In this document: piece by piece, positions 12,074-28,580 of the stretch
Layout of the letters: each line of letters begins with the position of its first letter
How positions within the stretch are numbered: the first letter of the stretch is position 1
Source: Chelatococcus sp. HY11
Lineage (GTDB): Bacteria; Pseudomonadota; Alphaproteobacteria; Rhizobiales; Beijerinckiaceae
Direction: 5' to 3'
Assembly (NCBI RefSeq): GCF_018398335.1
Contig: NZ_JAHBRX010000002.1
Span: 806,001-870,000 of the forward strand
DNA length: 64,000 nt
The notes under the pieces: generated by a model
Database searches by the model: none
The model's input: the letters and a program-made list of their open reading frames with translations, nothing else
Told to the model about the DNA's origin: nothing
Translations under genes and position numbers: made by a program

Positions 12074-13057
12074 ATGCCCGTTCGCAAGACTGAAAGCCGT
12101 ATTCCGGAGAATTATCAGGCTTCCGATCTCGGGCAGGCTGGGCTTTCGGCCGACGGGCGCTCAGCCGTTGTATCCTTCATCACATCGCCAGTTGTCATCG
12201 GTAGGGACAATACTTTCGTCGTCTTTATCACGGATGGCGCACTGGCCGCGTCCGTGCAGTCGTTCGAATGGTCCTTCGCCGAGAACGATGGCGCGCCCGC
12301 AGTCGTGACGGCAGGGATCGGCGAGGTCAGCTATCGCCCCACGGCGACAGGCCGTCTCGCAACTGCGGTGCGCTGCCTTGACGGCGGAGGGACCGCTCTC
12401 GCAGCCCTTTCTCTCGATCAATCGGTGGTCTCGCCGCACGCCGGGCTCGAGGCCATGATCGCGGCGGGCGCTGACGAGCCAGGTCCTTCCGCCGCCAATC
12501 CGGAGGTGTCGCGCGAGCTCGTCAACGACTACAATATCTACTATCAGAACGTGGTCCCGCGCTCGGGCGCCACGGATGAGGGCTTCCGGCGCCTGGTTTT
12601 TGCCTTGCTCATGGAAAGTGCATTGCAGACCAGTGTCGCCCGCCGTCAGGCCGATCTCGCGGACATGGAGGCGGTCCTGAACGCGGGATCGGCTGGCTTT
12701 GCGACGCTCGCCGGCCGTGGGTTGGGCGTCGCGGGGTTGCGTCCGACGCTTCTTGCCATGACTGTCGGCCCGCATCTACCTTGGACGGAGCTGCCTGCGG
12801 ATGGCGCGGCGCATGCCCTGGCCGAGGAGGAATTGCGTCGCAAAACGGCGGCGCTCCCTGAGGCAGCGCGCATCGACCTCTTCAATCTCGCCCGCTTTCC
12901 CAAAAGCAGCATCACGCAGTGCGGACGGGCGATCGAAGCCCTCCGTGACCGCTATTTCAACGGCATCGATTTCGACACGGTCCTCGCCGAGCTCAACGGC
13001 ACGCGGGCTCACTGGATCAACAGGCACTACCGGGAAGGGCCCCTGAAGCGCGCGTGA
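12074..13057 (+). CDS. Unknown protein A of the giant-protein block (beta-sandwich-like N-terminus)
   Basis: Product of 327 aa from ATG 12074; starts at 12044 or 11966 are possible but less likely. I recognise no family. Residues about 25-115 alternate hydrophobic and polar residues with a FEWSFAENDG segment and end in SYRPTATGRLATAVRCL, a pattern like PKD/Ig-type beta sandwiches. Residues 145-325 look helical, with several charged amphipathic stretches. No signal peptide or membrane segment is visible, so the product should start in the cytoplasm. It is the first gene of a six-gene block and is followed by gene B after 42 bp. A structural or adaptor role is a guess from context only. Confidence 0.6.
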   Translation: MPVRKTESRIPENYQASDLGQAGLSADGRSAVVSFITSPVVIGRDNTFVVFITDGALAASVQSFEWSFAENDGAPAVVTAGIGEVSYRPTATGRLATAVRCLDGGGTALAALSLDQSVVSPHAGLEAMIAAGADEPGPSAANPEVSRELVNDYNIYYQNVVPRSGATDEGFRRLVFALLMESALQTSVARRQADLADMEAVLNAGSAGFATLAGRGLGVAGLRPTLLAMTVGPHLPWTELPADGAAHALAEEELRRKTAALPEAARIDLFNLARFPKSSITQCGRAIEALRDRYFNGIDFDTVLAELNGTRAHWINRHYREGPLKRA

Positions 13058-13099
13058 CAAGCAACACCCCCGCCGATCCGTGCGGGCTGGAGGATCGGA

Positions 13100-14317
13100 A
13101 TGGGGAGGACGAGCAAGCGATCGCAAACGGCCGGCCATGAGGCCATCCGTCAGCTCGCGCCGAACACCGCCCCCGAGGGGCCCGGCCCCGATCCCGGTGG
13201 TGGTTCGGGCTCGACCTTTCCCTTGCCGCCGGCTCTGGAGACCGCCGCGCAAGCCTTCAGGCAACTTTTCACGGACAATGAATCGGAATACCATCTGCTC
13301 GGCGGCCAGTTCGCCCTGGTGCGCGCCATGCGCGCCGCGTTGAAGACGAAGATCTACGACATCAACGATACCGCCCTGCGCGAGGCGCTGCTCAGCTTGA
13401 TCGAGGATGGCGGCTGGGGCGATCTCGCCGACGCGATACGCTCGGCTGGCGTGCGCATCGGCCAGTCCTACCGGAACGGTCTGCCGGCAGGTCACCCCGA
13501 CAAGACAAAGCCGCTCGGCGTGCTGCGGTCCGGCTCGACGGTCACCGGCACTACGGCCTACACGTCGGCGACGGCTTCGGCACGCCAGACAATGAATGCC
13601 GCACAGGTCTCCGCGGCTGACAAGGCGATCGCCACCGCCGTACTCAACGACAATACCGCCAATGGCGCGTGGGCTTATGAGCGCGTGAACCGGTGGCTCG
13701 GTCAACCCAAGCTCGCCGCCGCGACATTCGACAAGGTTTCCTTGCCGCGGCAATGCGCTCTGTTTCTTGACTCACTCGTCATGTGCGGTTCCGCCTCGCA
13801 ATTCACCGCGAAACAACTCTTGAAAACGCGCAATGTCGCCGCGCAGTCGCTGCCGGCATTCACGCCGGTCACCTTGACGAACCTGAATGCCAAGGACGAC
13901 CGATCGACGACCAACAATCTGATGTTGAACTATACGCCCGGCCAGCTGCAGACTGTCGTCGCGGCCGCGCGCACGCTTCTCAGCGCGGGACGCTATCTCG
14001 TCGCCGGATGCCTGAGTGGCCGCAAGTACGAAGCCGGCGAACATCCGTTTCCCGAACATTACATTCTTCTCTTTGCCGTCGCCGACAAAACGTTTCTGTT
14101 CTGGGATCCGGATGTTTCGGTCACCGATATTGCTGAACTGAGTGGGAAACTTGGACCTGCTATCGGAGTTCTGTTCTACGACGATTCCGATGCCGCCCGT
14201 CCGAAATTCTCGACTGGTCTCGATTTCAACGATCTCTCCGATATCGACATCAACGGGCACCATACTAAACACCGAAAACGCCACCGATATCAGATCGTGC
14301 ACCTGCAAAAACCATAG
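13100..14317 (+). CDS. Unknown protein B of the giant-protein block; papain-like peptidase candidate
   Basis: Product of 405 aa; GGAGG sits just before the ATG. I know no named family for it, but the C-terminal half has a pattern seen in papain-fold peptidases (C39/NlpC/transglutaminase-like). A Cys opens a predicted helix (Cys219 in RQCALFLDSL; Cys229 is a second choice). About 90 residues later comes HYILLFAVADKTFLFWDPD, in which His320 begins a strand and Asp336 follows at the end of the next one. In C39-like enzymes the same His-strand-strand-Asp order completes the triad. Residues 1-45 are Pro/Gly-rich and probably disordered. No signal peptide is visible. If active, it could process one of the giant neighbours; an inactive scaffold is equally possible. 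Confidence 0.5.
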   Translation: MGRTSKRSQTAGHEAIRQLAPNTAPEGPGPDPGGGSGSTFPLPPALETAAQAFRQLFTDNESEYHLLGGQFALVRAMRAALKTKIYDINDTALREALLSLIEDGGWGDLADAIRSAGVRIGQSYRNGLPAGHPDKTKPLGVLRSGSTVTGTTAYTSATASARQTMNAAQVSAADKAIATAVLNDNTANGAWAYERVNRWLGQPKLAAATFDKVSLPRQCALFLDSLVMCGSASQFTAKQLLKTRNVAAQSLPAFTPVTLTNLNAKDDRSTTNNLMLNYTPGQLQTVVAAARTLLSAGRYLVAGCLSGRKYEAGEHPFPEHYILLFAVADKTFLFWDPDVSVTDIAELSGKLGPAIGVLFYDDSDAARPKFSTGLDFNDLSDIDINGHHTKHRKRHRYQIVHLQKP

Positions 14318-14353
14318 CCCGAGCGTTCCCCACTCTGGAGTGAGCCCCGCATC

Positions 14354-17300
14354 ATGTCCCAGAACGCCCTCACCTCCCTCCTCTGCGACATCGCGGTGGC
14401 GTTTGGATCGATCGCCGACATCGATACGCCGGAGCGGGCAGCCGCCCTCTTCGCCAAGCTCGGCTATGCCGTGCCGGGGGCGACCGCCATGGGGGCGCTC
14501 GCTGGCCTCAAGAGCGCGGTGGCCGGGCTCGGCGGCAGCGTCCGGGCTTCCGCCAGCATCGACACCGACAACGGAAAGCTTGCCGCCAATATCGATCTGC
14601 TCGCGCGGCTCGCGGCGGTCGCCGACGCCATGCGCCAGGTCCAATCAGCCCTTCAGGGCGCCGGTGTCCCCAATCTCGGCGAGCTCGTGCCACGGCTGAC
14701 CGACCATCTCCTGCTCGACCATATCGATCGCGCACAGCCGCAACTGCATGAGGGGTTGCTGCTCATTGGGCTGATCGATCGCAACGAGGCGCCGGCGGCC
14801 GGCCAGCCCATGCGGCGTATCAACTGGCGACGCCTGAGCGCCTTGCTCACCGCACCCGGCGAGATCGCCCGGGATGTCTATCGCTTCGACACCAACCTCG
14901 ATATCGATCTGCTCCTCGCGCGCCTCGAAAAGCTGATGCGCGCCTCCGGCATGCCGGGCGGGCGCTACCCGCAAGCGGCCGCGACCAAGGCGGCATTGGG
15001 CAACGCTGGCGCCGGGCTGCCGGAACTGCGTTTCCCCTTCTTCCAGAAAGGCTTCACACCCGAGACCTACAGCCAGTTCGGCATCACCATTTCGCCGGCC
15101 GAGGCCACCGGCGGCAAGCGCCGGGGCGTGGCGCTCCTCCCCTATATCAGGGGTGGAAACAGCTTCCAGTTCAATGTCTGCGATCGCGGCGAGCTTGTCT
15201 TCTCGTCCACGACCGACATTCGCAAGGTCGGCTTTACCGTGCGGCCTCCCTTCACGGCGGAAGGGCTTTTCGATCTCACCGGCGCCTTCGGCGCCAGCAT
15301 TGCCATTCGCGAGAAGAAGGCCCGCGCCGAGGAAGTCACCCTCATCGGCTCGCCCGGCGGCACGCGCCTCTCCGTACAAGGGCTCGGCTTCAACATCTTT
15401 GCCGGCACACCGCAGGGCAAGCTCGACCTCGGCGTCGAAGCCGAGATCGGTGCCTTCCGTTTCGTCATCGATGCCGGTAAGGCAGACGGCTTTCTGCAGA
15501 AGGTCCTCTCCGGCCTGCATGTGGAAGCGGAAACAGACCTCGCCTTCGGCATGGCGCTCTTGTCCGGCTTCACCTTTCGCGGCGGCGGCAAGCTCGCGCT
15601 GGAGCTCAGCACCCATATCGATCTCGGCCCGGCCAAGCTCGATGGCATCCGGCTTGGTCTCGGCCCGAGCAACGACCGCTTCAGCCTCGATACGGGGGCG
15701 CTGCTGAAGTTCGACCTCGGGCCGCTCAAGGCGGTTGTCGAGGACATCGGGCTTTCGACCAGCCTCGATTTCCGCCCGGGCAATCTCGGCCCGGCGCATC
15801 TCAGCGTCGGCTTCAAGCCGCCGAAGGGCGTGGGGCTGTCCGTTGATGCGGGCATCGTTACCGGTGGAGGCTATCTCAGCCTCGATCCCGAACGGGGCGA
15901 ATACGCCGGCGCCATCGAGCTCAGCTTCAGCGGCATCGTCGCGCTCAAGGCCTTCGGGCTCATCTCGACCAGGATGCCCGATGGCACCAAGGGCTTTTCG
16001 CTCGTCATCATCATCTCGGTCGAGTTCGGCACCGGCATCCAGCTCGGCTTCGGCTTCACGCTGCTGGCGGTTGGCGGCCTTATCGGCCTCAACCGGACGA
16101 TGAATCTCGAGGCGCTGATGGACGGCGTGCGCACCGGCTCCATTGAATCCATCATGTTCCCGCGGGACGTGGTGGCGAACGCACCGAAGATCATCAGCGA
16201 TCTCAGGACGTTGTTCCCGGCGCAGGAAGGCACCTTCCTCATCGGGCCGATGGCCAAGCTCGGCTGGGGTACGCCGACGCTGGTCAGCGTCTCGCTCGGG
16301 ATCATCATCGAGATCCCGGGCAACATCGCCATCATCGGGGTCCTGAAGGTGGCGATCCCAGCCGAGGATGCACCGCTCATCATCCTTCAGGTCAATTTCG
16401 CCGGCGCCATCGAATTCGACAAGCAACGCATCTATTTCTTCGCCTCGCTGTTTGAATCCCGGGTCGTCTTCCTCACCATCGACGGCGAGATGGGATTGCT
16501 CGTGGCCTTTGGCGACGACGCGAATTTCGTCGTCAGCGTCGGTGGTTTCCACCCCCGTTTCGCGCCGCCGCCCCTGCCCTTCCCAAGCCCAAGGCGCATC
16601 AGCGTCAGCCTCCTCAGCACGCCGTTGTCCCGAGTGAGGATCGAGGGCTATTTCGCCGTCACTGCCAATACCGTGCAATTCGGGGCGCGGGTCGAGGTCT
16701 ATTTCGGCTTCAGCGCCCTCAACGTCAAAGGCCATCTCGCCTTCGACGCACTGTTCCAGTTCTCGCCCTTCCGCTTCATCATCGAGATCTCCGCCTCGCT
16801 GTCGGCGAATGTCTTCGGCGCGGGGCTGTTTTCGGTGCGTGTCCGGGGCGAGCTGCAAGGCCCCGCGAAATGGCGCATCAGGGGCCAAGGCTCGATCTCT
16901 TTGCTCTTCTGGGATGTCGATGTGGACATCAACGAGAGCTGGGGCGAGAGCGCCGACACCCTGCTGCCGCCGATCGCGGTACTGCCGCTGCTCGCCGGCG
17001 AATATGCCAAGATGGAGAACTGGCGGGCAATCCTGCCCGCAGGGAACGGGCTCTTCGTCACGCTGCGCAAGATGCCGGCCGAGGAAGCAGCGCTTGTCCT
17101 TCATCCCGTCGGCCTCCTGGCGATCAGCCAGCGCACCGTGCCGCTCGCTATCAAGCTCGACAAGATCGGCAATCAGGCGCCCAGTGACGTCAACCGGCTG
17201 ACGATCGATGTCGCCGGCGGCGGGCTCGCCAAGCGCGACGACGCCTTCGAGCCCTTCGCGCCGGCGCAGTTCCAGAATTTCTCAGATGCCGACAAGCTGT

Positions 17301-17737
17301 CGCGGCCAGCCTTCGCGCCGGAGAAATCCGGTTTGCATCTGTCCGCAGCAGGTGCCGATCTCAGGACGAGCCGCATGGTCAAACGCATCGTGCGTTACGA
17401 AGAGATCATCATTGACAACAACTTCAAGCGCTTTACGCGGCGCTTCTTCCTCTTCGCCGGCACGCTGTTCAATTTCTTCCTCAACGGCGCGGCGATCACC
17501 CATTGCGCGCTCTCGAAGGCCGCCAAGAAGCAGCTCGATCCGTTCGAGGACAAGATCACGGTGATGCCGGAGACCTTTACCGTGGCTTTCCAGGCGACCA
17601 ACAAGGCCTTCGCCGCCAATGCCGGCGCCTTCCGCAGCGAGGCGAGCGCCCGCCAGTTCATGAATGACGTCGTCGCGAACGATCCCACACTGATGGACGC
17701 CGTCCACGTCATTCCAAGCTACGAGCGGGCGGCATGA
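14354..17737 (+). CDS. DUF6603-type giant beta-rich protein
   Basis: Product of 1127 aa. From roughly residue 220 to 870 it is a long series of amphipathic beta strands with recurring GLG, GGF and LDLG turns. Stretches such as GGLIGLNRTMNLEAL, VGGFHPRFAPPP, TANTVQFGARVEVY and FDALFQFSPF match the DUF6603 family as I know it, whose function is not established. The alternating strands recall autotransporter passengers or lipid-transfer beta tunnels (for example AsmA-like), but there is no signal peptide and no C-terminal outer-membrane barrel signature. Residues 1-160 are helical and Ala-rich; the C-terminal 250 residues are mixed. It is third in the block, 36 bp after gene B and 46 bp before gene D. 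Confidence 0.7.
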   Translation: MSQNALTSLLCDIAVAFGSIADIDTPERAAALFAKLGYAVPGATAMGALAGLKSAVAGLGGSVRASASIDTDNGKLAANIDLLARLAAVADAMRQVQSALQGAGVPNLGELVPRLTDHLLLDHIDRAQPQLHEGLLLIGLIDRNEAPAAGQPMRRINWRRLSALLTAPGEIARDVYRFDTNLDIDLLLARLEKLMRASGMPGGRYPQAAATKAALGNAGAGLPELRFPFFQKGFTPETYSQFGITISPAEATGGKRRGVALLPYIRGGNSFQFNVCDRGELVFSSTTDIRKVGFTVRPPFTAEGLFDLTGAFGASIAIREKKARAEEVTLIGSPGGTRLSVQGLGFNIFAGTPQGKLDLGVEAEIGAFRFVIDAGKADGFLQKVLSGLHVEAETDLAFGMALLSGFTFRGGGKLALELSTHIDLGPAKLDGIRLGLGPSNDRFSLDTGALLKFDLGPLKAVVEDIGLSTSLDFRPGNLGPAHLSVGFKPPKGVGLSVDAGIVTGGGYLSLDPERGEYAGAIELSFSGIVALKAFGLISTRMPDGTKGFSLVIIISVEFGTGIQLGFGFTLLAVGGLIGLNRTMNLEALMDGVRTGSIESIMFPRDVVANAPKIISDLRTLFPAQEGTFLIGPMAKLGWGTPTLVSVSLGIIIEIPGNIAIIGVLKVAIPAEDAPLIILQVNFAGAIEFDKQRIYFFASLFESRVVFLTIDGEMGLLVAFGDDANFVVSVGGFHPRFAPPPLPFPSPRRISVSLLSTPLSRVRIEGYFAVTANTVQFGARVEVYFGFSALNVKGHLAFDALFQFSPFRFIIEISASLSANVFGAGLFSVRVRGELQGPAKWRIRGQGSISLLFWDVDVDINESWGESADTLLPPIAVLPLLAGEYAKMENWRAILPAGNGLFVTLRKMPAEEAALVLHPVGLLAISQRTVPLAIKLDKIGNQAPSDVNRLTIDVAGGGLAKRDDAFEPFAPAQFQNFSDADKLSRPAFAPEKSGLHLSAAGADLRTSRMVKRIVRYEEIIIDNNFKRFTRRFFLFAGTLFNFFLNGAAITHCALSKAAKKQLDPFEDKITVMPETFTVAFQATNKAFAANAGAFRSEASARQFMNDVVANDPTLMDAVHVIPSYERAA

Positions 17738-17783
17738 AGGGGCGCGCGGGCGTAATGGCCAGAGCGATGGCGGGGGTGACGGA

Positions 17784-20700
17784 ATGAGCGTGATCGGCAC
17801 CTACTCCTTCCTGCCATGGCTGCGCCAGGGCCTCGCCAATCAGATCGCCTCCGCTGATTTCGATCCCTCGGTCAAAGTCAGGGCCTCGGTGAGCATCGAC
17901 CTGGCGCTGACCGGCGACAAGCTCGGCGGCGGTACGACAGCAGAGACAGTGAGCCGCCCCATGGCGCTGTTTGGCCCCGGCGATATCGTGGGCATCGACA
18001 AGCGCGCCATCGTCCGTGTCGAGCCGCGCGACTGGGTCACGAATTTCGAGCCCAACTATCTGCCGGCCATCGAATTCTACGACGAGGACTTTCCGTGGCG
18101 CTACACACCGGCGGCGCCCGATCTCGGCCGGGGGCGGCTGCGTCCCTGGCTTGCCCTCGTCGTCCTCGCGGAAGGCGAGTTCAAGGACGGCAAGGCAGGG
18201 CTCGACCGGCCGTTACCTTATGTCGACGTCGACAATCTCGCCGCCTTTCCCCGCGCCGACGAGCTGTGGGCCTGGGCCCATGTCCATGTCAACCGCAGCC
18301 TCGCGGCAGGCGACAGCGAGTTCGTCTCGACGGATGTGAACGCGGTCCTGTCGAAATTCGGCGCGGTCCTGGCTGAGAACCCTGATCTCGCGTATTCGCG
18401 GATCATCTCGCCACGCAAGCTGGCGGAGAACACCGCCTATCACGCCTTTCTCGTGCCGACCTTCGAGACGGGGCGTCGCGCCGGTCTCAAGATCGAGATC
18501 GGCGACGATGTTCCCGCGACGTTGTCGGCCTGGGACGCCGGTCGCCGGCCTGAGCCGCAGAGCTTTCCCTATTATCACCGCTGGTTCTTCCACACGGGCG
18601 CGCGTGGCGATTTCGAGATGCTCGTCCGCCTGCTCAAGCCGAAGCCGGTGGATCCGCGCGTCGGCACACGCGAAATGGACGTGCAATATCCGGGCGCCAA
18701 TGTCGCGGGGCTCGATAAGCCGGAGCTGGGCGGCATCCTCAAGCTCGGGGGCGCGCTTCGCCCCCCGGCCAAGGTGCCGGCCACACCACCGGACCTATTC
18801 GAGACCTGGGACGATCCCTTTCCGAGGCCGCTTCAGGAGGATCTCGCCCGGCTTCTCAACCTGCCGGACGACTATCAGCGCGCGGGCGACCCCGACCCGA
18901 TCATCGCGCCGCCTCTCTACGGGACCTGGCATGCGCTGACGAAGCGGGTGCTGAGCGAGGCCGACGGTTCGCCGGCGGCAACCCCGGACAACTGGGTGCA
19001 CCGGCTCAATCTCGATCCGCGCTTTCGCGTACCGGCAGGTTTCGGCACCCGTGTCATCCAGGACAACCAGGAAAAATACATGGATGCGGCCTGGGAGCAG
19101 GTGGGCAACGTGCTCGAGGCGCAGCGCCGCATCCGCTTCGGCCAGTTCGCGGTGAAGGTCAGCGAGATCTGGTACGACCGCCATCTGCTGCCGCTCGTCG
19201 GCGTGAGCCGGCAGAAGGCCCTCCTGCTCATGGCGCCGCTGAACAAGCGTATTCTCACCGGGGCTTTGACCATCCACCACGCGCAGGCGACGAGCCTGCT
19301 GCAGCCGGTCATGACATCGGCACCCTTGCGCCGCATCATCCGGCCACGCGGGCGGCTGATCAGCGCCCTTCCCTTCGACGCCGCGCGCCCGCCCGACCAG
19401 CTCATTGATCGCGTCAACAAAGGCGAGGTCAGCGCGGCACCTCCCAAACAGACACCGCCCGGCCTCTTCACCGCCGATCAGGCGGCGGACGCGCTCGTGC
19501 CGGCTGCCGCGCCGCCCTGGGTGGTGGATTGGCTGAAGCGCCTGCCGCCTCTGCCATGGCTCGTCATTCTCGTCGCCATTCTCATCGCTCTCCTCTGCCT
19601 CCTGGTGCTGTCACCGACCATCGGGGTCCTCCTGGCGGCGGTCGTCATCGCCGTCGGGGTCTATCTCAGGCGGTGGCTCAACCAATGGGCTCCCTCCGTC
19701 GCCGCGTCAGAGGCCTTGAAGGAGGACAACCAGACGCCAGCGGCCGTCGATGCCATGCCGGGGGCTGGCGGCTTCGTGATCACCGAGCCAGGCTCCGGAT
19801 TCCTGCCCGGTCGCGGGCCGGACAGCCAGGAGGCAACGCGTTTCAAGACCGCCCTGAAGGAGGGCTTCGCGCTCGTCCAGGCCAGCGCCGCCGCCGGCGC
19901 GGCCCCGGTCCGGCGTCCGCTCGATCTCGATGGCCTCACCGCGACAGCCGTCAAGGCGATCAACCCCACGCACACGATCCCGCGCCGTATCCGCGCCGGC
20001 ATTTTCGTTCCGCCCCGCCTCATCATTGAGATCGGGGAAGCCTTCGTCGAGCCCATGGCCTATCCAGTCATCGACCAGCCGATGTACGAACCTCTGACGG
20101 CGCGCTCCTCGGAGCTCTTCCTGCCGAACATCAATCTCATCGCGAATAATTCGATCACGCTGCTCGAAACCAACCAGCGTTTCATCGAATCCTACATGGT
20201 CGGCCTCAACCATGAATTCGCGCGCGAGCTCCTGTGGCGGGAATATCCGACAGACCAGCGCGGCTCGACCTTCCGCCAATTCTGGGATGTGCGCTCGTTC
20301 TTCAACAGGGACAATCTCGACGACGAGGCGCTGAAGGAAAAACTCCGCGACATCAAACCCCTCCACACATGGAGCCGGACGTCCTCTCTCGGCAGCCACG
20401 ACAACCGCGAGGCCGTCGCCGGCGCGACGGAGGAAGAGCTGGTGCTCGTCATCCGTGGGGAATTGCTGAAGCGTTATCCAACCGCCGTCATCTATGCCCA
20501 TCGCGCCGTCTGGCAACGCAAGGACGACGGCACGGAGGCCGACAAGGCCCGTGAGCCGTGGGATCGCCATGGCCCGATCGACAATCTCAAGGAGCGGCGC
20601 CTTGCGCCTCTCACCGCCGCCGAGGAGGCCAATCCGCCGAAGTCCAAGGTTTTGACGCCGCTCTACCAGGCGCGCGTCGAGCCCGACATCTATTTCTTCG

Positions 20701-21089
20701 GCTTCGACCTCACCGTGGAGAAGGCAAAAGGAGGCACGGGCGCCGATCCCGACGACGATCCCGGCTGGTTCTTCGTCATCAAGGAGCGCCCCGGTGAACC
20801 CCGCTTCGGCCTCGACATCGAGAACCAGCCGAAACTGAATGTCTGGAATGATCTCGCCTGGGACGACGTGCAGCCCAATGCGCCGGGCAGCCATATCGAG
20901 ATCGCAAAGGCGCCCGCCACCCTCACGCTCGTGACGCCGACCGGCACCGACAGCGAGAAGGCCGTACAGTTCGCCGACGACAAGAAAATCGCCTGGAGCC
21001 ACGGCATGAGCTCCGCGGAACTCGCTTACATTCTCTTCCAGGCCCCTGTGCTCGTTGGCGTCCACGCCAGCGAGATGCTTCCGAAGTGA
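17784..21089 (+). CDS. Unknown protein D of the giant-protein block, with a central membrane hairpin
   Basis: Product of 1101 aa of no family I can name. Residues about 588-630 (LPWLVILVAILIALLCLLVL, then GVLLAAVVIAVGVYL) form two adjacent hydrophobic segments, a likely membrane hairpin in an otherwise soluble protein. The flanking halves are rich in Trp, Pro and Arg. The segment NHEFARELLWREYPTDQRG (about 810-828) followed by FRQFWDV is a striking, probably conserved block that I associate with uncharacterised giant proteins in other bacteria. A late segment ARVEPDIYFFGFDLTV looks like a strand pair. No signal peptide is visible. The next gene begins 10 bp downstream, pointing to translational coupling and matched amounts. 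Confidence 0.6.
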   Translation: MSVIGTYSFLPWLRQGLANQIASADFDPSVKVRASVSIDLALTGDKLGGGTTAETVSRPMALFGPGDIVGIDKRAIVRVEPRDWVTNFEPNYLPAIEFYDEDFPWRYTPAAPDLGRGRLRPWLALVVLAEGEFKDGKAGLDRPLPYVDVDNLAAFPRADELWAWAHVHVNRSLAAGDSEFVSTDVNAVLSKFGAVLAENPDLAYSRIISPRKLAENTAYHAFLVPTFETGRRAGLKIEIGDDVPATLSAWDAGRRPEPQSFPYYHRWFFHTGARGDFEMLVRLLKPKPVDPRVGTREMDVQYPGANVAGLDKPELGGILKLGGALRPPAKVPATPPDLFETWDDPFPRPLQEDLARLLNLPDDYQRAGDPDPIIAPPLYGTWHALTKRVLSEADGSPAATPDNWVHRLNLDPRFRVPAGFGTRVIQDNQEKYMDAAWEQVGNVLEAQRRIRFGQFAVKVSEIWYDRHLLPLVGVSRQKALLLMAPLNKRILTGALTIHHAQATSLLQPVMTSAPLRRIIRPRGRLISALPFDAARPPDQLIDRVNKGEVSAAPPKQTPPGLFTADQAADALVPAAAPPWVVDWLKRLPPLPWLVILVAILIALLCLLVLSPTIGVLLAAVVIAVGVYLRRWLNQWAPSVAASEALKEDNQTPAAVDAMPGAGGFVITEPGSGFLPGRGPDSQEATRFKTALKEGFALVQASAAAGAAPVRRPLDLDGLTATAVKAINPTHTIPRRIRAGIFVPPRLIIEIGEAFVEPMAYPVIDQPMYEPLTARSSELFLPNINLIANNSITLLETNQRFIESYMVGLNHEFARELLWREYPTDQRGSTFRQFWDVRSFFNRDNLDDEALKEKLRDIKPLHTWSRTSSLGSHDNREAVAGATEEELVLVIRGELLKRYPTAVIYAHRAVWQRKDDGTEADKAREPWDRHGPIDNLKERRLAPLTAAEEANPPKSKVLTPLYQARVEPDIYFFGFDLTVEKAKGGTGADPDDDPGWFFVIKERPGEPRFGLDIENQPKLNVWNDLAWDDVQPNAPGSHIEIAKAPATLTLVTPTGTDSEKAVQFADDKKIAWSHGMSSAELAYILFQAPVLVGVHASEMLPK

Positions 21090-21098
21090 GAGGGCGCC

Positions 21099-24000
21099 AT
21101 GGCTGATTTCAATGATCTGCGCGTCGCGCTCAACACGACACGATCGGCGCTCGATGGTCTCCAAAGTGAGATCGCGGCGCTCAGGGCGCGCCTGAAACGC
21201 CTCGAAGACGAGGACGCCGCGGCTTCCCGCCGCTTCAATCCGCGCGATGAAGCCGACGTCGCGGCACGGGAGCACCGCGCGGCGGACAAGCGCCTTCTCG
21301 CATCCAGGCTCGCGGATCTGCGCGAGCGCGAAAAGGCGGCCCTGACGGACGAAATCCGCATCCGCACCGATTTCGCCGATTTCACAGATCCGCGCAGGGG
21401 GATTTCCAACCTCGGCGACGCGACGCCGATCCTCATGATGCCGATCCGGCTTGAGACACGTTTCAAGCCTGCGCGGGAAACCGGCGCAAGTACCGATGAA
21501 CTCTGGCTGCGCGTCTATCCCGATGACTGCTTCATCACCACCTTCGATCCGGCGCTGACCCCGGCGGAAGCGGCGGATGCGCGGAGCTATTGGGCGGGTA
21601 TCTGGTCGGCCGGCGGGCACGAAGACGAGGAACGCGCGGCCTGGCGGGCCATCGCCACCACCCATGGCGCGGGACGGGCTGGCTGGATCGTCGACCAGTT
21701 CCCAGAGATAGCCGCCTCGGCCCGGCCGACCAAGCCAAGACCACAGGACATCGTCCTGACCGTCGTCACCGAGACGCCCCTGCCCGCCGCCGAGGTCGCC
21801 GCGCTCGCCCCGTTCTGGCAGGCGGCGTGGCGCGCGCAGGGCGACGCGACCGCGTTGACGTCGGCGCGGGAGGCGCTCGCAGCGGCCGTCGGCCCGGATC
21901 GCGCCGCGGCGCTGGCGGCGGAAACCCAGCCTGCCAATTTTGCCGTCGCACCGGCGGCGGGCAACGATCCGGCGAGCCTCAATGTCGCCGTCGCCTTCCT
22001 CGTTTTTCCACCCGTCGAGACCAAGGAGAGCGCCTGGGCGAGCGCGCCGAAGATGACGCTCCTGCCGGATCGCTTCGTCTTCATCGGCTATCGCGGCAAC
22101 GCGGCCCCGCGCATCGTCCTCGGCAATCCCGTACCGGCGACGCTCTTCGTGGGTCCGGATCCTCAGGCCGATGCGGCGAGCCAGATCCATCACGACGACG
22201 ATGGCCATATCGCCATGCCCGACGCGCTCAAGTGGATCACGGATTTCCCGCAGGCTGTCGAGGACGGTATGGGCTTGCGGATCACGCTGGATCCGGACGA
22301 AGCCAAAGGCGGCTTTGACCGGGTGCTCGTTGTCGGCCTGCGGCTGAGCGCCGACGCGACAGAAGGGGCCGCCCAATTCGCCGCGCTGCTACGCGGCCAC
22401 GCCTGCGGCCGGACCGGACTCGCCGTTTTGCCGCAAGGCACGCCGACCAACAACACCGAGACGGTTTCATCCGGTCACGCCCGCCTCGACGATCCCGATG
22501 CCGCCTTCGACGATCGCAAGTCCGCACTTTTCATTCCCGATGCCGACTGGCTCGACAAGCGCGACGGCGAATGGCTGGCGGACTATCTCGGCATCGACAG
22601 GCAAGTCTTCGCGCATGTGCATGGCGCCGGTGCGACCGACCAGATCGCCGCGCGCGCCATGAACACGGCACTCTGGCCCGCCACCCTGGGCTACTGGATG
22701 GAAAGCTTGATGTCGCCGGTCTTTCCGCATCGGGTGATCGAACAGACGCGCAGCTTCTTCAATCGCTATGTCATCGCCGGCGGCGCCGTGCCGGCGCTTC
22801 GCATAGGCGCCCAGCCTTACGGCATCCTGCCAGCGACGGCCTTCTCGCGCATGGCATGGCTCGAGGCCCGCGAGCGCCCGCTCCTGCGCGGCGAGGACCC
22901 GACGCTTGCCTTTCTGAGGGAGCTGCGCCGGATCATCGCCGCCTTCGAGACAGACTGGCGCACTATCGGCGCCGGTCTCGCCCATGTCGGCAAGGCGGGC
23001 GACCCGCACCAGATCCTGCTCGATATCGTCGGGCTCCATTCCGGTTCGGTGGAATGGTCGCAACGCTATGCCGAAAGCCTGAAGACGGTCTTCAACCGCC
23101 TCAACCTCCTCGGCCTCGGCGGGCTCATGGAGCAGATCAACATCAGCGTGCGGCAGGCGGCCGCCCGCCAGATCCTGGCCAATCTCGGCTACGCCGGCGA
23201 GGAGACGCCAGAGATCTTCGACAAGCTCTTCTCGGGCCGCCACAACCTCCTCAAGGGCGGCGTCGTGGATGACGTCCCCCTCTCGGAGACGGCTCCCATC
23301 CGCGCCTATACGCCCGATGGCCGGAACTATATCGAATGGTTGAGCACGGCTTCCGGCACCTCGCTCAACGCGCTTTATGCCCAGGACGGCTTCCTCGACG
23401 ACAAGCCGCCGAAAGCCCTGCTCTATCTCATGCTGCGCCATGCCTTGCAGCTCGGCTACCATGATGTCAGCGTCCGCCTCTATGAGAACGCCGCGTTGAT
23501 GACACCAGCGGCAGCCGTCCTCGCCCGGCAGGACAGTCCCTTTCTTCATATCCAGGCGGCGAACACGCTCAGCGAGAGCCGCTACCAGATACTCCAAAGC
23601 GCCGAGGCCACAATCACCGGCTCGGCAACCCAGACGGTCTCGGATTTCATCACGGCGCAGTTGCCGACCTTGAACCTCGCTTTCCATCTGCGGGACCAGC
23701 GCGCCGCCCTCGAGCGCCTGAAAGCGGAACCCACGGCGCGCCTCGAGCGGGTTTTCGCCGATCACGTCGATTGCCTGAGCTACCGGCCGGACGCCTGGCT
23801 GCTCGGCCTCGTCACCTATCAACTTACACGCATGCGCAATATCGCCGACGGCGAGGACCGCGAGCCGCGGCGCGGTCTTCATCTCGGCGCTTATGGCTGG
23901 CTGGAGGAACTGAGGCCGGAGAACAAACATCTGACGCCGGTCCGGCTTGATGACCCGGAACTCGCCGCGGATTTCAGCGATCCCGAAGCGCCGCCCCTGA

Positions 24001-26672
24001 TGCGCGACGACACCAACCAGGGTTCCATCCACGCGCCTTCGCTCAACCACGCCGTCGCCGCCGCGGTGCTGCGTAACGGCTATATCACCAATGCGGGCAA
24101 GCCGAACGGCGAGACCATGTCGGTCAACCTCTCATCGGAGCGCGTGCGCACGGCGCTCGCGCTGCTGGAGGGCGTACGGGCGGGCCAGGGCCTCGGCGAT
24201 CTCCTCGGCTACCAGTTCGAGCGGGGGTTGCACGACCGTCATGGGCCCATCGAGGTCGACAAGTTCATCTATAAATTGCGCAAGGCCTTCCCGATCCGGG
24301 CTGACCGCATGACATCCACCCGCACCGGGGAAGGCGTGCCCGTCGAGGCGATCGAAGCGCGCAACGTCATCGATGGCCTCGCCCTGGTCAATCACATGAA
24401 GGCGGGTGGCGCCTCAACCTACCCCTTCGGCAAGGCGAACCTGCCGCCTGCCACCGCCGCCGAGGCCGCCGCCATCAACGCGGAGGCCAAGGCGCTGGTC
24501 GATGCGCATGACGCCGTCGCAGATCTCGCACTCGCCGAGGGTGTCTACCAGGCCGTGCTCGGCAATTACGACCGGGTGGCCGCCACTTATGACGCCTACG
24601 CGCGGGGCAATTTCCCCCCGGAGCCGGAAGTGGTGCGCACGCCGCTTGACGGTATCGGGCTGACCCACCGCGTCGGCCTGCATCTCGATGCAACCGCGAG
24701 CCCCACGACCTCGCCACTGGCGGGTGTCGCGATGACCCCGCGCGCCCAGGCCGAGCCCGCCCTGAACCGCTGGCTCGCAAGCGTCATGCCCCCGCCCGCA
24801 GAGGTCGGCTGCGTCGTTGCCTTCACCGAAGCCGCCACGGGCGGAGAGCGGACACGGGAGGTCACGCTCGCCGATCTCGGCCTCCAGCCGAGCGACAGCC
24901 TCGCCCTCGTCGGCCATGACAGCGAACAGGCCATGCGCGAGATCGATGACCGCATCCTCCGCCATGTGATGGAGAATTTCGCGCCGCGCCCCGACAGGCC
25001 GGTCACCATCCGCTACATGGAAACCGAGGCCGCCCCCATTTCCCTCTTCGCGCTGAGCCCGCTGCTCAAGGCCCTGCGGCAGCTCACCACCAAGTCACGC
25101 GCGCTGAAGCCGAGCGATCTCACCCTGATGAACGAGGCGACTGTCGCCCAGGACGCCGCGCCGGTCATCGAGAAGGCGAGGCTCGATCTAGTGCAGGCTG
25201 CGATGGCGAGCCTGCACGCTGATCTCACGGCGTTCCAGGCCGCGCTTAATGGGCCGCTCGCCGATCTCGACAATCGTCGTGGGGAGATCCTCGACCACAT
25301 CGACGATCATGTGACGGCGCTGGTGGCTCTCATGGCGCGGGCGGCGCTCTTCGCCATTCCGCAAGCCGGTTGGGGCATGGCCTATGACTTCAAACGGCGC
25401 AGCTATGCCGCCGTGCTCGCACAATTCGCTGAGCGGGTGGCGCGCTGGGACGCCCAGCTGGCCATCTTCGATGCCACGGTCACCACCTATGGCACCCTGC
25501 CGGTGGAGACGAGCGATGATGAGCGCTTCAGGCTGCTCGTCCAGGCGGAACAGGCGATTTCGGCCACGGCGACGGAGGTGCTGCCGCCGACACCGGCCGC
25601 CTTCCTCGCGGACCTCGCGATGAAACGCGCCGCCTTCGTGACCAAGCAGGCGGCGCTCAAGAGCCTCGAGAACACGACGGAGACGGGGCTCGTCGGCCTG
25701 CTCGCCGAAGCCGCCGCCCATCTGCCGACCGACGACTTCGATCCGCTGCCCTTCACCCTCGCGGAGCGCGAAGCCGAGATCATTCGCTTCGCCGAGGATG
25801 CGGCCCTGCTCATCGCCCGCATCGCGGCCGAGATCGAGCGCCGCCTTACCCTGTCCCAGAACCACTTTGATGCTCACGACGCGGCCGCGACGGCGACTGA
25901 AGCCGCGACCGCGCTGGAAAAGGCGGCAAAGGCCCTCCTTGGCGAAGATTTCCGCGTCATCCCGACGTTCCGTCTCGGGGCGGGTCAGAGCAGCGAGATG
26001 GCGAACGCGCTGGCCGCCACCCAGTCCGGCGATCTCTTTGCCTATCTGACCGCAGCACCGGACCCGGCGACGCCCGCCATCGCGCCCTTGCCCGTGGAGA
26101 CCTGGCTCGCGGGAATTGCCCGGGTGCGCGACAAGTTGCGCGCCTTCGAGCAGATCGCCACCTTTACCGGCGCCTTCGGCCGCGATGAGCCGGAGCTGAC
26201 GCCCTTGCAGCTTCCCTTCATGCCGGACGACCGCTGGCTGGCCCTTGAATTCCCGCCTGATCTCGCGCTGGACAAGGACCGGCTGCTGTATAGCGCGGTC
26301 TTCGCCGCCCCGTTCGACGGAACGGCGGGGCAATGCGGCCTTTTCCTCGACGAATGGACCGAGACGATCCCCGGCGCCAACGCCACAACCGGGATTGCCT
26401 TTCACCATGACCGGCCGAACACGGAGGCGCCGCAGACCATGCTTCTGGTTACGCCCAGCGATTTCCGGGGCGCGTGGCAGTGGGAGGACCTGGTCGATGC
26501 CCTCAACGAGACGCTCGACCTCGCCAAGCTGCGCGCCATCGAGCCCGCCCATATCGACGCCACGCCCTATGCTCCCTTCCTGCCGGCAACCGTGATGGCC
26601 GCCCAGGCGCGGCAACTGACCATCGCCGCCAATCTCGTGCTCAACAACAGCTTCAACCTTGTCCGGCCTTAA
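21099..26672 (+). CDS. Unknown protein E of the giant-protein block (1857 aa)
   Basis: The largest protein of the window. Residues 3-92 form a heptad-like coiled coil (LQSEIAALRARLKRLEDED and onward). After it come blocks that look conserved: TPILMMPIRLETRF, LRVYPDDCFITTFDP, FVFIGYRGN, GNPVPATLFVGPDP and LPQGTPTNN. A second long helical, Ala/Glu-rich region (about 1360-1610) contains further coiled-coil potential. No signal peptide, membrane segment or enzymatic motif is recognisable. The gene starts 10 bp after gene D and ends 10 bp before gene F. The coiled coils and size suggest a scaffold or assembly subunit; that is inference. It does not look like a known phage tail, polyketide or RHS/toxin protein. 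Confidence 0.6.
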   Translation: MADFNDLRVALNTTRSALDGLQSEIAALRARLKRLEDEDAAASRRFNPRDEADVAAREHRAADKRLLASRLADLREREKAALTDEIRIRTDFADFTDPRRGISNLGDATPILMMPIRLETRFKPARETGASTDELWLRVYPDDCFITTFDPALTPAEAADARSYWAGIWSAGGHEDEERAAWRAIATTHGAGRAGWIVDQFPEIAASARPTKPRPQDIVLTVVTETPLPAAEVAALAPFWQAAWRAQGDATALTSAREALAAAVGPDRAAALAAETQPANFAVAPAAGNDPASLNVAVAFLVFPPVETKESAWASAPKMTLLPDRFVFIGYRGNAAPRIVLGNPVPATLFVGPDPQADAASQIHHDDDGHIAMPDALKWITDFPQAVEDGMGLRITLDPDEAKGGFDRVLVVGLRLSADATEGAAQFAALLRGHACGRTGLAVLPQGTPTNNTETVSSGHARLDDPDAAFDDRKSALFIPDADWLDKRDGEWLADYLGIDRQVFAHVHGAGATDQIAARAMNTALWPATLGYWMESLMSPVFPHRVIEQTRSFFNRYVIAGGAVPALRIGAQPYGILPATAFSRMAWLEARERPLLRGEDPTLAFLRELRRIIAAFETDWRTIGAGLAHVGKAGDPHQILLDIVGLHSGSVEWSQRYAESLKTVFNRLNLLGLGGLMEQINISVRQAAARQILANLGYAGEETPEIFDKLFSGRHNLLKGGVVDDVPLSETAPIRAYTPDGRNYIEWLSTASGTSLNALYAQDGFLDDKPPKALLYLMLRHALQLGYHDVSVRLYENAALMTPAAAVLARQDSPFLHIQAANTLSESRYQILQSAEATITGSATQTVSDFITAQLPTLNLAFHLRDQRAALERLKAEPTARLERVFADHVDCLSYRPDAWLLGLVTYQLTRMRNIADGEDREPRRGLHLGAYGWLEELRPENKHLTPVRLDDPELAADFSDPEAPPLMRDDTNQGSIHAPSLNHAVAAAVLRNGYITNAGKPNGETMSVNLSSERVRTALALLEGVRAGQGLGDLLGYQFERGLHDRHGPIEVDKFIYKLRKAFPIRADRMTSTRTGEGVPVEAIEARNVIDGLALVNHMKAGGASTYPFGKANLPPATAAEAAAINAEAKALVDAHDAVADLALAEGVYQAVLGNYDRVAATYDAYARGNFPPEPEVVRTPLDGIGLTHRVGLHLDATASPTTSPLAGVAMTPRAQAEPALNRWLASVMPPPAEVGCVVAFTEAATGGERTREVTLADLGLQPSDSLALVGHDSEQAMREIDDRILRHVMENFAPRPDRPVTIRYMETEAAPISLFALSPLLKALRQLTTKSRALKPSDLTLMNEATVAQDAAPVIEKARLDLVQAAMASLHADLTAFQAALNGPLADLDNRRGEILDHIDDHVTALVALMARAALFAIPQAGWGMAYDFKRRSYAAVLAQFAERVARWDAQLAIFDATVTTYGTLPVETSDDERFRLLVQAEQAISATATEVLPPTPAAFLADLAMKRAAFVTKQAALKSLENTTETGLVGLLAEAAAHLPTDDFDPLPFTLAEREAEIIRFAEDAALLIARIAAEIERRLTLSQNHFDAHDAAATATEAATALEKAAKALLGEDFRVIPTFRLGAGQSSEMANALAATQSGDLFAYLTAAPDPATPAIAPLPVETWLAGIARVRDKLRAFEQIATFTGAFGRDEPELTPLQLPFMPDDRWLALEFPPDLALDKDRLLYSAVFAAPFDGTAGQCGLFLDEWTETIPGANATTGIAFHHDRPNTEAPQTMLLVTPSDFRGAWQWEDLVDALNETLDLAKLRAIEPAHIDATPYAPFLPATVMAAQARQLTIAANLVLNNSFNLVRP

Positions 26673-26681
26673 GGATCCGCG

Positions 26682-28580
26682 ATGTCCGAGAAGCTCATCA
26701 CGGCCAATCTGGCCGCAACGATCGCCACCCGCGCCCTGCCGGGCATCACCCAGTGGAACAGGCTCGAAGGCCGCCCCCGCACCGAGAATTTCGAACGGGC
26801 CCTGCGGGCCGAGATCCGCGATCCCCTCTGGCTTCTGACCCGCCAGTGGCAGATGGGCGAATTCCGCGGTGATGACGCGGGATCGCCGATCTTCGCCCGG
26901 GCCCGTATCGAAACGACACGGCTTACAGGCTATCGCGCTGCCGATGGCCCGGCCGAGGCCTTCGACACATCGCTGCCGCTCGAGGCGCGTGTCGAGCCGC
27001 TGCCGGTCGCGCTCTCCCTCGGTGATCACGACATCGCCCTCGATATCCGGCTGATGCTGGGGCGTTACTGGCTGAAACTGATCAAAGCTTTGCCCCAGGC
27101 TGCCCGCGACCAGTACATCGCGGCTTATCCCATCCATGCGCCCGACCCGAACGATGCGGCGGACGCGCCGACGCTCGCCCATGCGGACGCCTGGGCGCAA
27201 TTCGCCGCCGTGGCCGGCCGGGCGATGGATGGAGCCAAGCTCTATGCCTATCTGAAGGCCGATCCAGCGCACCGCGCCTCCGACGGCATCGCGGCCCTTG
27301 CCGGCGGCGAGGCGCAAGCCGACGCGCATGGCGTGCATTTCCTCGCCTGGTTCGAGAAACTCCTGCACCAGCCGGCCGAGGGTTCCGCCTTCATTCCGGA
27401 ACGGCTCGAATATCAGTTCAGCTGCGCCACGCCAGCCGCCGACGGCGCGGAGAAGGTCTATGTCGCGGATCAATATTTCCAGGGACATCTCGACTGGTAC
27501 AATTTCGACAGCGATCCCACCCGGACGATGCTTGGCGAAGCGACCACGGTCGGCGGTGAAGCAACCGCTGGGGGGGAGCCTCCTCAGGCGGCCGTTGAGC
27601 CGCCCGAGGTGACGACGCTGACGACGTTGCCGGCGCAGGCGACCTTCAACGGCATGCCCAACACACGCTGGTGGGCCTTCGAGGACGGCCGCACCAATTT
27701 CGGCGACATCAAGCCCGACACCACGGACCTCGCCAAGCTCCTCCTGATCGAGTTCGGCCTCATCTATGCCAATGACTGGTTCGTCGTGCCCTTCATCGTG
27801 CCGGCCGGCGCGATCGCAACGATCAAGGGCCTCGCCGTCACCAATGTCTTCGGCGAGCGTATCTGGATCGAGGCCGCCGGTCGCGGCAACGACGATAACT
27901 GGCAGCGCTGGGCCCTGTTTCTCACGAGCGTCAAGGGGCAGGGCCACCAGGAGGCGGATCTGAGCCTCATGATCCCCCCGGCCGCGCAGAAGACGCTGGA
28001 AGCCGCCCCTCTTGAAGAAGTGGTCTTCGTCCGTGACGAGATGGCGAACATGGTCTGGGGACTGGAGCAGACCGTGCCCCTGCCGACCGGCATGCCGAAA
28101 CCCGGCGCCTCCGCCGCCCGCGAAACGCGGCTCTTCTTTGAAAAGGACGTGGAACGGCGCCTCGGCGCGCCGCCGCAACCACCACCCGCGGCGAGTGGAG
28201 CCAAGATCCGCTACAAGGTCATGAGCACGGTACCGGAAAATTGGATCCCCATGATCCCGGTACATGTGCCCGGCGACAATCGCGAGGTTCAGCTCCAGCG
28301 CGCGGCCATGCTGCGCGTTATCGAAGGCGACCCCGCCCCACCAGCCAGCGTACGGCCGCGCAGCTCGCTGTTGCGCCACGGCCTCGACGAAACGCCACCG
28401 CAGCCGTATTTCCTGCACGAGGAAGAAGTCTCGCGCGCCGGCGTGCGCGTGACCAAGAGCTTCCAACGCACGCGCTGGCGCGACGGCCGTGTGTGGTTGT
28501 GGCTCGGGCTCCGCAAGCAGACCGGGCGGGGCGGAGGCTCGAGTGGCCTGTCCTTCGACCGCATCGTCGATCTGGCATGA
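26682..28580 (+). CDS. Unknown protein F of the giant-protein block
   Basis: Product of 632 aa, last gene of the block. The N-terminus has a strong motif string: ITQWNRLEGRPR, then LRAEIRDPLWLLTRQWQMGE and FRGDDAGSP (about 25-70), which I believe typifies an unnamed family accompanying the other giant proteins. The middle (about 330-400) has LLLIEFGLIYANDWFVVPF and VTNVFGERIWIEAAG, likely core beta strands. A low-complexity Gly/Glu/Pro linker (about 285-310) separates two globular halves. No signal peptide or catalytic motif is seen. No terminator hairpin is obvious after the stop; about 280 bp later the cassette-2 regulator begins. Confidence 0.6.
   Translation: MSEKLITANLAATIATRALPGITQWNRLEGRPRTENFERALRAEIRDPLWLLTRQWQMGEFRGDDAGSPIFARARIETTRLTGYRAADGPAEAFDTSLPLEARVEPLPVALSLGDHDIALDIRLMLGRYWLKLIKALPQAARDQYIAAYPIHAPDPNDAADAPTLAHADAWAQFAAVAGRAMDGAKLYAYLKADPAHRASDGIAALAGGEAQADAHGVHFLAWFEKLLHQPAEGSAFIPERLEYQFSCATPAADGAEKVYVADQYFQGHLDWYNFDSDPTRTMLGEATTVGGEATAGGEPPQAAVEPPEVTTLTTLPAQATFNGMPNTRWWAFEDGRTNFGDIKPDTTDLAKLLLIEFGLIYANDWFVVPFIVPAGAIATIKGLAVTNVFGERIWIEAAGRGNDDNWQRWALFLTSVKGQGHQEADLSLMIPPAAQKTLEAAPLEEVVFVRDEMANMVWGLEQTVPLPTGMPKPGASAARETRLFFEKDVERRLGAPPQPPPAASGAKIRYKVMSTVPENWIPMIPVHVPGDNREVQLQRAAMLRVIEGDPAPPASVRPRSSLLRHGLDETPPQPYFLHEEEVSRAGVRVTKSFQRTRWRDGRVWLWLGLRKQTGRGGGSSGLSFDRIVDLA

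What the first reader, a model, noticed from the sequence alone, without database searches (positions are those of the whole stretch)
12074..28580. Six-gene, 16.5-kb operon of giant proteins with no known function
Seen: six same-strand genes (327, 405, 1127, 1101, 1857, 632 aa) with gaps of 42, 36, 46, 10 and 10 bp, no signal peptides, no mobile-element genes, bounded by unrelated transport cassettes. Known: the third carries a DUF6603-type domain of unestablished function. Inference: the 10-bp gaps and fixed order suggest subunits made in set ratios. With two coiled-coil regions in E, a membrane hairpin in D, a beta-strand array in C and a peptidase-like B, a large assembled machine or particle is possible.
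Basis: partly seen in the sequence, partly recalled or inferred. Interest (0 to 1): 0.8.

Follow-up and report, generated by a model that had tools for sequence, protein, structure and literature searches.

The report
Giant-protein chassis with swappable hydrolase
Four very large proteins of unknown function travel together through distant bacteria and a salt-loving archaeon, and the gene just in front of them is usually a digestive-type enzyme that is swapped for an unrelated one from genome to genome, so this looks like an undescribed machine with an exchangeable enzyme whose job is still unproven.

Summary
The six ORFs are real, but they are not one fixed six-gene unit. C (DUF6603), D, E and F are a constant cassette: all 59 loci with complete flanks (of 78 examined, window included) carry C-D-E-F in order on one strand, in 11 named bacterial phyla; a haloarchaeal plasmid has it too. 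The slot before C varies: 63 slot genes comprise trypsin-like 14, M64-type 13, subtilase 9, caspase-like 8, PhoD 5, PLD 2, LAS-like 2, B-type 2, glycosidase-like 1, unassigned 7. Of nine further loci, six had a hydrolase. Two non-catalytic modules recombine with unrelated catalytic domains: A, and a C-terminal domain shared by trypsin-like and subtilase slots. Here A+B fill the slot. D, E and F match no NCBIfam or PADLOC family and no Pfam family above cut-off; D has no significant fold match. My reading: a chassis that holds and deploys an exchangeable hydrolase. Swapping is well supported; assembly, docking, location and target are inferred. Paper searches found nothing on it.

The parts
12074..13057 (+). 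A, 327 aa: presumed adaptor; relatives stand beside or are fused to unrelated peptidases (caspase-like, subtilase L036, LAS-like)
   Evidence: N-terminal part has a sub-threshold Ig-like Pfam match (E 0.0065)
13100..14317 (+). B, 405 aa: presumed payload, cysteine-peptidase-like by C229/H320/D336 (codons at 13784, 14057, 14105); only 12 database relatives
   Evidence: catalytic role is inference, no profile match
14354..17737 (+). C, 1127 aa: core protein with DUF6603 (residues 421-979, window 15614-17290); helical N terminus, then a long antiparallel beta array
17784..21089 (+). D, 1101 aa: core protein, most used as probe; predicted helical part holds a hydrophobic hairpin (about residues 590-645, window 19551-19718)
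21099..26672 (+). E, 1857 aa: core protein, helical N terminus and a helix-rich stretch near profile positions 1385-1602
26682..28580 (+). F, 632 aa: core protein; a haloarchaeal relative is fused to lamin tail domains

Best explanation
C, D, E and F are the constant chassis of one system, probably subunits of one large assembly made in the cytoplasm without a Sec signal (inferred). The gene or genes just upstream of C encode an exchangeable hydrolase that docks on the chassis through a non-catalytic adaptor: A in this window and several others, a C-terminal 'LVNxNRxVxxxWHRxxGP' domain in trypsin-like and most subtilase slots (recombination shown; docking inferred). I think the chassis keeps the enzyme harmless in the producer and deploys it outside the cytoplasm against polymers of other cells: proteins, phospholipids, cell wall, polysaccharide. 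In this window the payload would be B, probably a cysteine peptidase, with A as adaptor. Shown: constant cassette, hydrolase swapping, module recombination, patchy spread across phyla. Inferred: assembly, docking, export, target.
For: C-D-E-F in order on one strand in 59 of 59 loci with complete flanks, typical joins of -4 or 11 bases. 56 of 63 slot genes assigned to hydrolase classes, by Pfam, by similarity to Pfam-matched members or by motif; 3 of these 56 (B twice, L050) rest on a few residues only. Slot class needs 29 changes over 54 labelled D rows; shuffled labels need 34.0 on average, so class follows descent only weakly; close starred neighbours differ (L011 S8/L008 TRY, L014 TRY/L020 S8, L023 S8/L027 PLD). 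Six of nine further loci hold a hydrolase. One C-terminal module is shared by trypsin-like slots and 6 of 7 subtilase slots; A is fused to a caspase-like protein in L171 (profile probability 100% for both halves) and to LAS-like proteins. Haloarchaeal slot is PhoD.
Against: No experiment, and no complex prediction, shows that C-F bind each other or the enzyme. 7 of 69 loci with enough upstream sequence have no gene within 400 bp of C; 7 of 63 slot genes are unassigned; of four plasmid regions opened only Salinigranum has a hydrolase directly before C; 3 of nine further loci lack one. Motif checks are incomplete: HExxH in 8 of 13 M64-type, all three subtilase motifs by my pattern in 4 of 9, my trypsin His pattern in 2 and GDSG in 14 of 14 trypsin-like, my PhoD pattern in 0 of 5 (rough patterns). 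D's hairpin is absent in 16 of 59, so a membrane step cannot depend on it. No transport partner was identified.
Confidence: 0.45

Rival explanations
1. Intracellular conflict (defence) system: C-F sense an invader and switch on the docked hydrolase, which kills or arrests the own cell.
For: Caspase-like and trypsin-like enzymes are effectors in described prokaryotic conflict systems (passages of PMC7159879); patchy distribution; no Sec-like signals; some copies on plasmids beside recombinases.
Against: PLD, PhoD, transglycosylase, LAS-like, sulfatase and glycosidase-like neighbours suit envelope or outside targets better; no NTPase or sensor domain is recognised in the cassette; in 120 flanking proteins no PADLOC family matched more than 3 (25 of 183 families shown, no background control).
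Confidence: 0.27
2. Maturation module: the slot peptidase processes or activates the giant C-F proteins, which do the real work.
For: Most assigned slot enzymes are of peptidase classes; position directly before C (median gap 3 bp).
Against: PLD, PhoD, glycosidase-like and transglycosylase slots could not process proteins; unrelated enzymes would have to share one cleavage job.
Confidence: 0.1
3. Extracellular or surface scaffold for nutrient-degrading enzymes, not a weapon.
For: Enzyme classes are of secreted, degradative kinds; many hosts are soil or water bacteria (titles); F carries lamin tail domains in a haloarchaeon; the window's flanks are peptide-type ABC transporters.
Against: No Sec-like signals in core or, with one doubtful flag (L052), in assigned slot proteins; no anchor domain found in the six proteins.
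Confidence: 0.18

Closest known systems
DUF6603 (Pfam PF20248)
   Same: C holds the whole domain far above cut-off
   Different: A family without function; it also occurs in other proteins: 9 of 15 Bacteroidota genomes with a match lack D and F
vWA-MoxR and related conflict systems with variable effectors (PMC7159879, passages seen)
   Same: Variable trypsin-like or caspase-like peptidases beside conserved partners; neighbours that co-occur with the peptidase
   Different: No vWA, MoxR or other NTPase recognised in this cassette
Tc toxin A subunits and tripartite alpha pore-forming toxins
   Different: Foldseek finds no match at E <= 0.001; no such Pfam family in the six proteins; hairpin missing in 16 of 59 D
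ApoB100 beta belt and porin-like beta arrays
   Different: Large rmsd, TM-scores of 0.16 or less to the query; no signal peptide; C also in Actinomycetota, Paenibacillus and a haloarchaeon

Membership tests
DUF6603 (PF20248) | Profile match above the gathering score | tested here: met
   426.9 bits against 27
Contractile or phage-tail-like injection systems | Recognisable sheath, tube, baseplate or tail families in the cassette | tested here: not met
   No such Pfam or PHROGs match at E <= 0.001 in the six proteins
Tc toxins | Tc or RHS-type domains by sequence | tested here: not met
   None among Pfam matches of the six proteins at E <= 1
Tc toxins | Pore-forming helical fold | tested here: inconclusive
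vWA-MoxR conflict systems | vWA and MoxR-type ATPase partners | tested here: not met
   No such Pfam match in the six proteins
Outer-membrane beta barrels (for C) | Sec signal and restriction to diderms | tested here: not met
   Crude test flags 2 of 53 C, neither signal-like in my judgement; C occurs in monoderm Actinomycetota and an archaeon
Known anti-phage defence systems (PADLOC-DB 2.0.0) | Profile match of a cassette protein | tested here: not met
   None at E <= 1 for the six proteins
Papain-like cysteine peptidase (for B) | Cys-His-Asp/Asn set in a papain-like fold | tested here: inconclusive
   C229, H320, D336 invariant in 13 sequences; no profile match, fold not predicted

The most novel reading that the evidence does not exclude
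A widespread particle or translocating complex, built from four protein families of which three have no name, that carries interchangeable hydrolase payloads out of the cell: a delivery device unrelated to phage tails, Tc toxins and the known secretion systems.
Probability: 0.28. Interest if true: 0.95.

Novelty: categorically new. Interest (0 to 1): 0.8.

Why it matters
About 14 kb of strictly co-inherited sequence in at least 11 named bacterial phyla and a haloarchaeon has no described function, and three of its four proteins no family name. The swappable enzyme slot turns proteins of unknown function into a testable question: does the chassis hold, activate or deliver the hydrolase? If it delivers, it is a new kind of enzyme-delivery device; if it defends, a new class of defence with an unusual enzyme repertoire.

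Tried and rejected
Profile searches of C, D, E and F against solved-structure sequences gave coiled-coil or designed-helix matches for C and E, two chance-level matches for D and none for F. Foldseek of D against PDB and viral models: nothing at E <= 0.001; C: seven chains at E <= 0.001, all with low TM-scores. Homology among C, D, E and F by profile comparison: none. Phage origin: one 4-kb IMG/VR fragment and one 'UNVERIFIED Bacteriophage' contig (L086) that carries C-D-E-F and, in my judgement, reads like bacterial DNA. PADLOC on 120 flanking proteins: type I restriction and MADS genes match in a few, no family in more than 3. Terminator scan: 11 found, 13.5 expected, so it says nothing on a single transcript. 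Papers: searches gave nothing on this cassette; the library holds open-licence PMC papers only. L042's slot looked caspase-like to the eye; a profile comparison did not bear it out, so it is counted as unassigned.

Handling and dropped rows: ORFs were called by a longest-ORF rule; in the first maps some D were hidden by longer overlapping frames, so one search used six-frame segments. The A profile used there had taken in the L067 and L069 fusions. In the D tree rows L073, L030, L055, L065, L040 and L036 and rows under 850 aa were left out and over-long ones trimmed. Slot labels were set by hand. One search labelled L010 and L032 trypsin-like although their candidate genes lie over 1 kb from C; one search dropped these two and added L052 and L042 (L042 as caspase-like), again 54 labelled rows and 29 changes; 1 of 200 shuffles was as low. 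L074 and L070 are long branches that meet, unsafe. Five loci had too little upstream sequence to look for a slot, and three had no C. Of 14 plasmid or phage hits 5 regions were opened. Of 107 confirmed stretches the tool kept 80, giving 77 loci. The nine further loci are 9 of the 12 D-positive genomes and 105 other than L003's and L006's; their D are 25-64% identical to the nearest of the first set.

Full report
The observation. Most relatives of A start at the methionine that corresponds to 12074. Only C matches a Pfam family above cut-off, DUF6603 at 426.9 bits. The genome has one DUF6603 copy. The closest named D is from Chelatococcus asaccharovorans at 95%, so the window is probably from a Chelatococcus (inference). 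All 4 genomes searched of its genus, own included, carry D; of 398 sampled genomes of its phylum only its own does.

The constant part. D used as probe gave 77 loci from genome contigs; with the window 78 were examined. Of these, 59 have more than 3.6 kb upstream and 8 kb downstream of D, and all 59 carry C, D, E and F in that order on one strand. Median joins are -4 (C-D), 11 (D-E) and -4 bases (E-F). The 59 belong to 11 named bacterial phyla, one being unranked; D rows in the tree span 13 named phyla. On plasmids D matched 13 records, among them Natrinema, Salinigranum, Halalkalicoccus and Halobellus; all four plasmid regions opened have C-D-E-F matches in order, one of them (Rhizobium) with D and E each split over two frames. 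Other starting points agree: F occurs in 6 of 345 Bacteroidota genomes, the same six that have D among the 15 tested; in 346 Actinomycetota D is in 8 and F in 9, seven shared, and the unshared matches are partial. DUF6603 alone is not diagnostic: 9 of 15 Bacteroidota genomes with a match lack D and F. Phylum changes at least 25 times on the D tree, and the window's D is nearest, outside its genus, to Kribbella and Tessaracoccus; lateral transfer is likely, not proven.

The variable part. Of 69 loci other than the window with enough upstream sequence, 62 have a + strand gene of at least 150 aa ending within 400 bp of C (median gap 3 bp) and 7 do not. With B these are 63 slot genes: trypsin-like 14, M64-type 13, subtilase 9, caspase-like 8, PhoD 5, PLD 2, LAS-like 2, B-type 2, glycosidase-like 1, unassigned 7 (L016, L042, L048, L053, L063, L066, L077). 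Direct Pfam support at E <= 0.001 over the 63: M64 12, S8 8, PhoD 4, Nal1_C 4, Trypsin_2 3, PLDc_2 2; the rest rests on similarity to those members or on motifs. The caspase-like, LAS-like, glycosidase-like and B labels use recalled motifs. Motif checks were mixed: GDSG in 14 of 14 but my His pattern in 2 of 14 trypsin-like; HExxH in 8 of 13 M64-type; all three subtilase motifs in 4 of 9; two HKD motifs in 2 of 2 PLD; the cysteine block in 8 of 8 and my His pattern in 6 of 8 caspase-like; my PhoD pattern in 0 of 5. The L071 sulfatase lies 924 bp from C and is not counted. Slot class changes 29 times over 54 labelled D rows, against 34.0 for shuffled labels (1 of 200 as low), so class is only weakly tied to descent. 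Close starred neighbours differ: S8/TRY, TRY/S8, S8/PLD.

Further loci. Nine loci from genomes outside the first set, whose D are 25-64% identical to the nearest D there, gave a hydrolase in six: subtilase in L167 (Pfam) and L170 (class profile), M64 in L175, PhoD in L172 (23.6 bits, below cut-off), a transglycosylase with peptidoglycan-binding domain in L174 (behind a 284-aa frame that I read as the split-off start of C), and an A-caspase-like fusion in L171. L168 has no slot gene nearby, L169 an N-terminally extended C, L173 a WD40 protein. Of four plasmid regions opened, only Salinigranum has a hydrolase (PhoD, 40.5 bits) directly before C.

Adaptors. Two non-catalytic modules recombine with unrelated catalytic domains here. 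Trypsin-like and subtilase slots share about 115 residues at their C termini with a 'HxxEVxxLVNxNRxVxxxWHRxxGP' core (profile probability 99%, E 2.7e-18; 6 of 7 subtilase rows tested). A matches occur in 11 of 78 loci, one of them partial: beside B, beside caspase-like proteins (L024, L028, L045, L046, L078), beside a subtilase (L036), and fused in front of LAS-like (L067, L069) and caspase-like (L171) domains. I infer that both dock the enzyme to the chassis.

How it most likely works. The best reading is a constant chassis (C-F) that holds and deploys an exchangeable hydrolase. The enzyme list (peptidases, phospholipase or phosphodiesterase types, cell-wall and sugar hydrolases; no nuclease recognised, though the PLD superfamily includes some, recalled) points to targets outside the cytoplasm; the lack of Sec-like signals (4 of 63 slot genes flagged, 3 of them unassigned and one, L052, doubtful) points to another way out or to release on lysis. 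Defence inside the cell is the main rival (passages of PMC7159879). Assembly, docking, export and target are all inferred.

Known or new. C belongs to DUF6603, a family without function. No paper in the library names it, and searches with enzyme and system terms found none on the cassette. The logic of constant core and variable effector is known; this chassis is not a member of any tested family beyond DUF6603.

Noticed in passing
window 10248-11618, - strand: A 456-aa hydrophobic ORF stands between the epimerase and A in the window; in L002 (Chelatococcus asaccharovorans) those two genes are nearly adjacent. Plasmid relatives in Sulfitobacter at about 30% identity.
   Followed up: partly
L108-L112, L116, L123: DUF6603 in other long proteins of Bacteroidota without D or F in the genome.
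   Followed up: partly
L169:12026-18637 (- strand): A 2203-aa C whose N-terminal half is made of further repeated beta segments.
   Followed up: no
L086 (MT835531.1): A record labelled UNVERIFIED Bacteriophage sp. carries C-D-E-F and looks like bacterial DNA.
   Followed up: partly
L173:6309-7547, L016:2573-3565, L084:24928-25893: Beta-propeller (WD40 or PD40) genes beside the cassette in three loci.
   Followed up: no
L043, L058, L062, L003, L019, L044: Two or more paralogous slot hydrolases in tandem before C.
   Followed up: no
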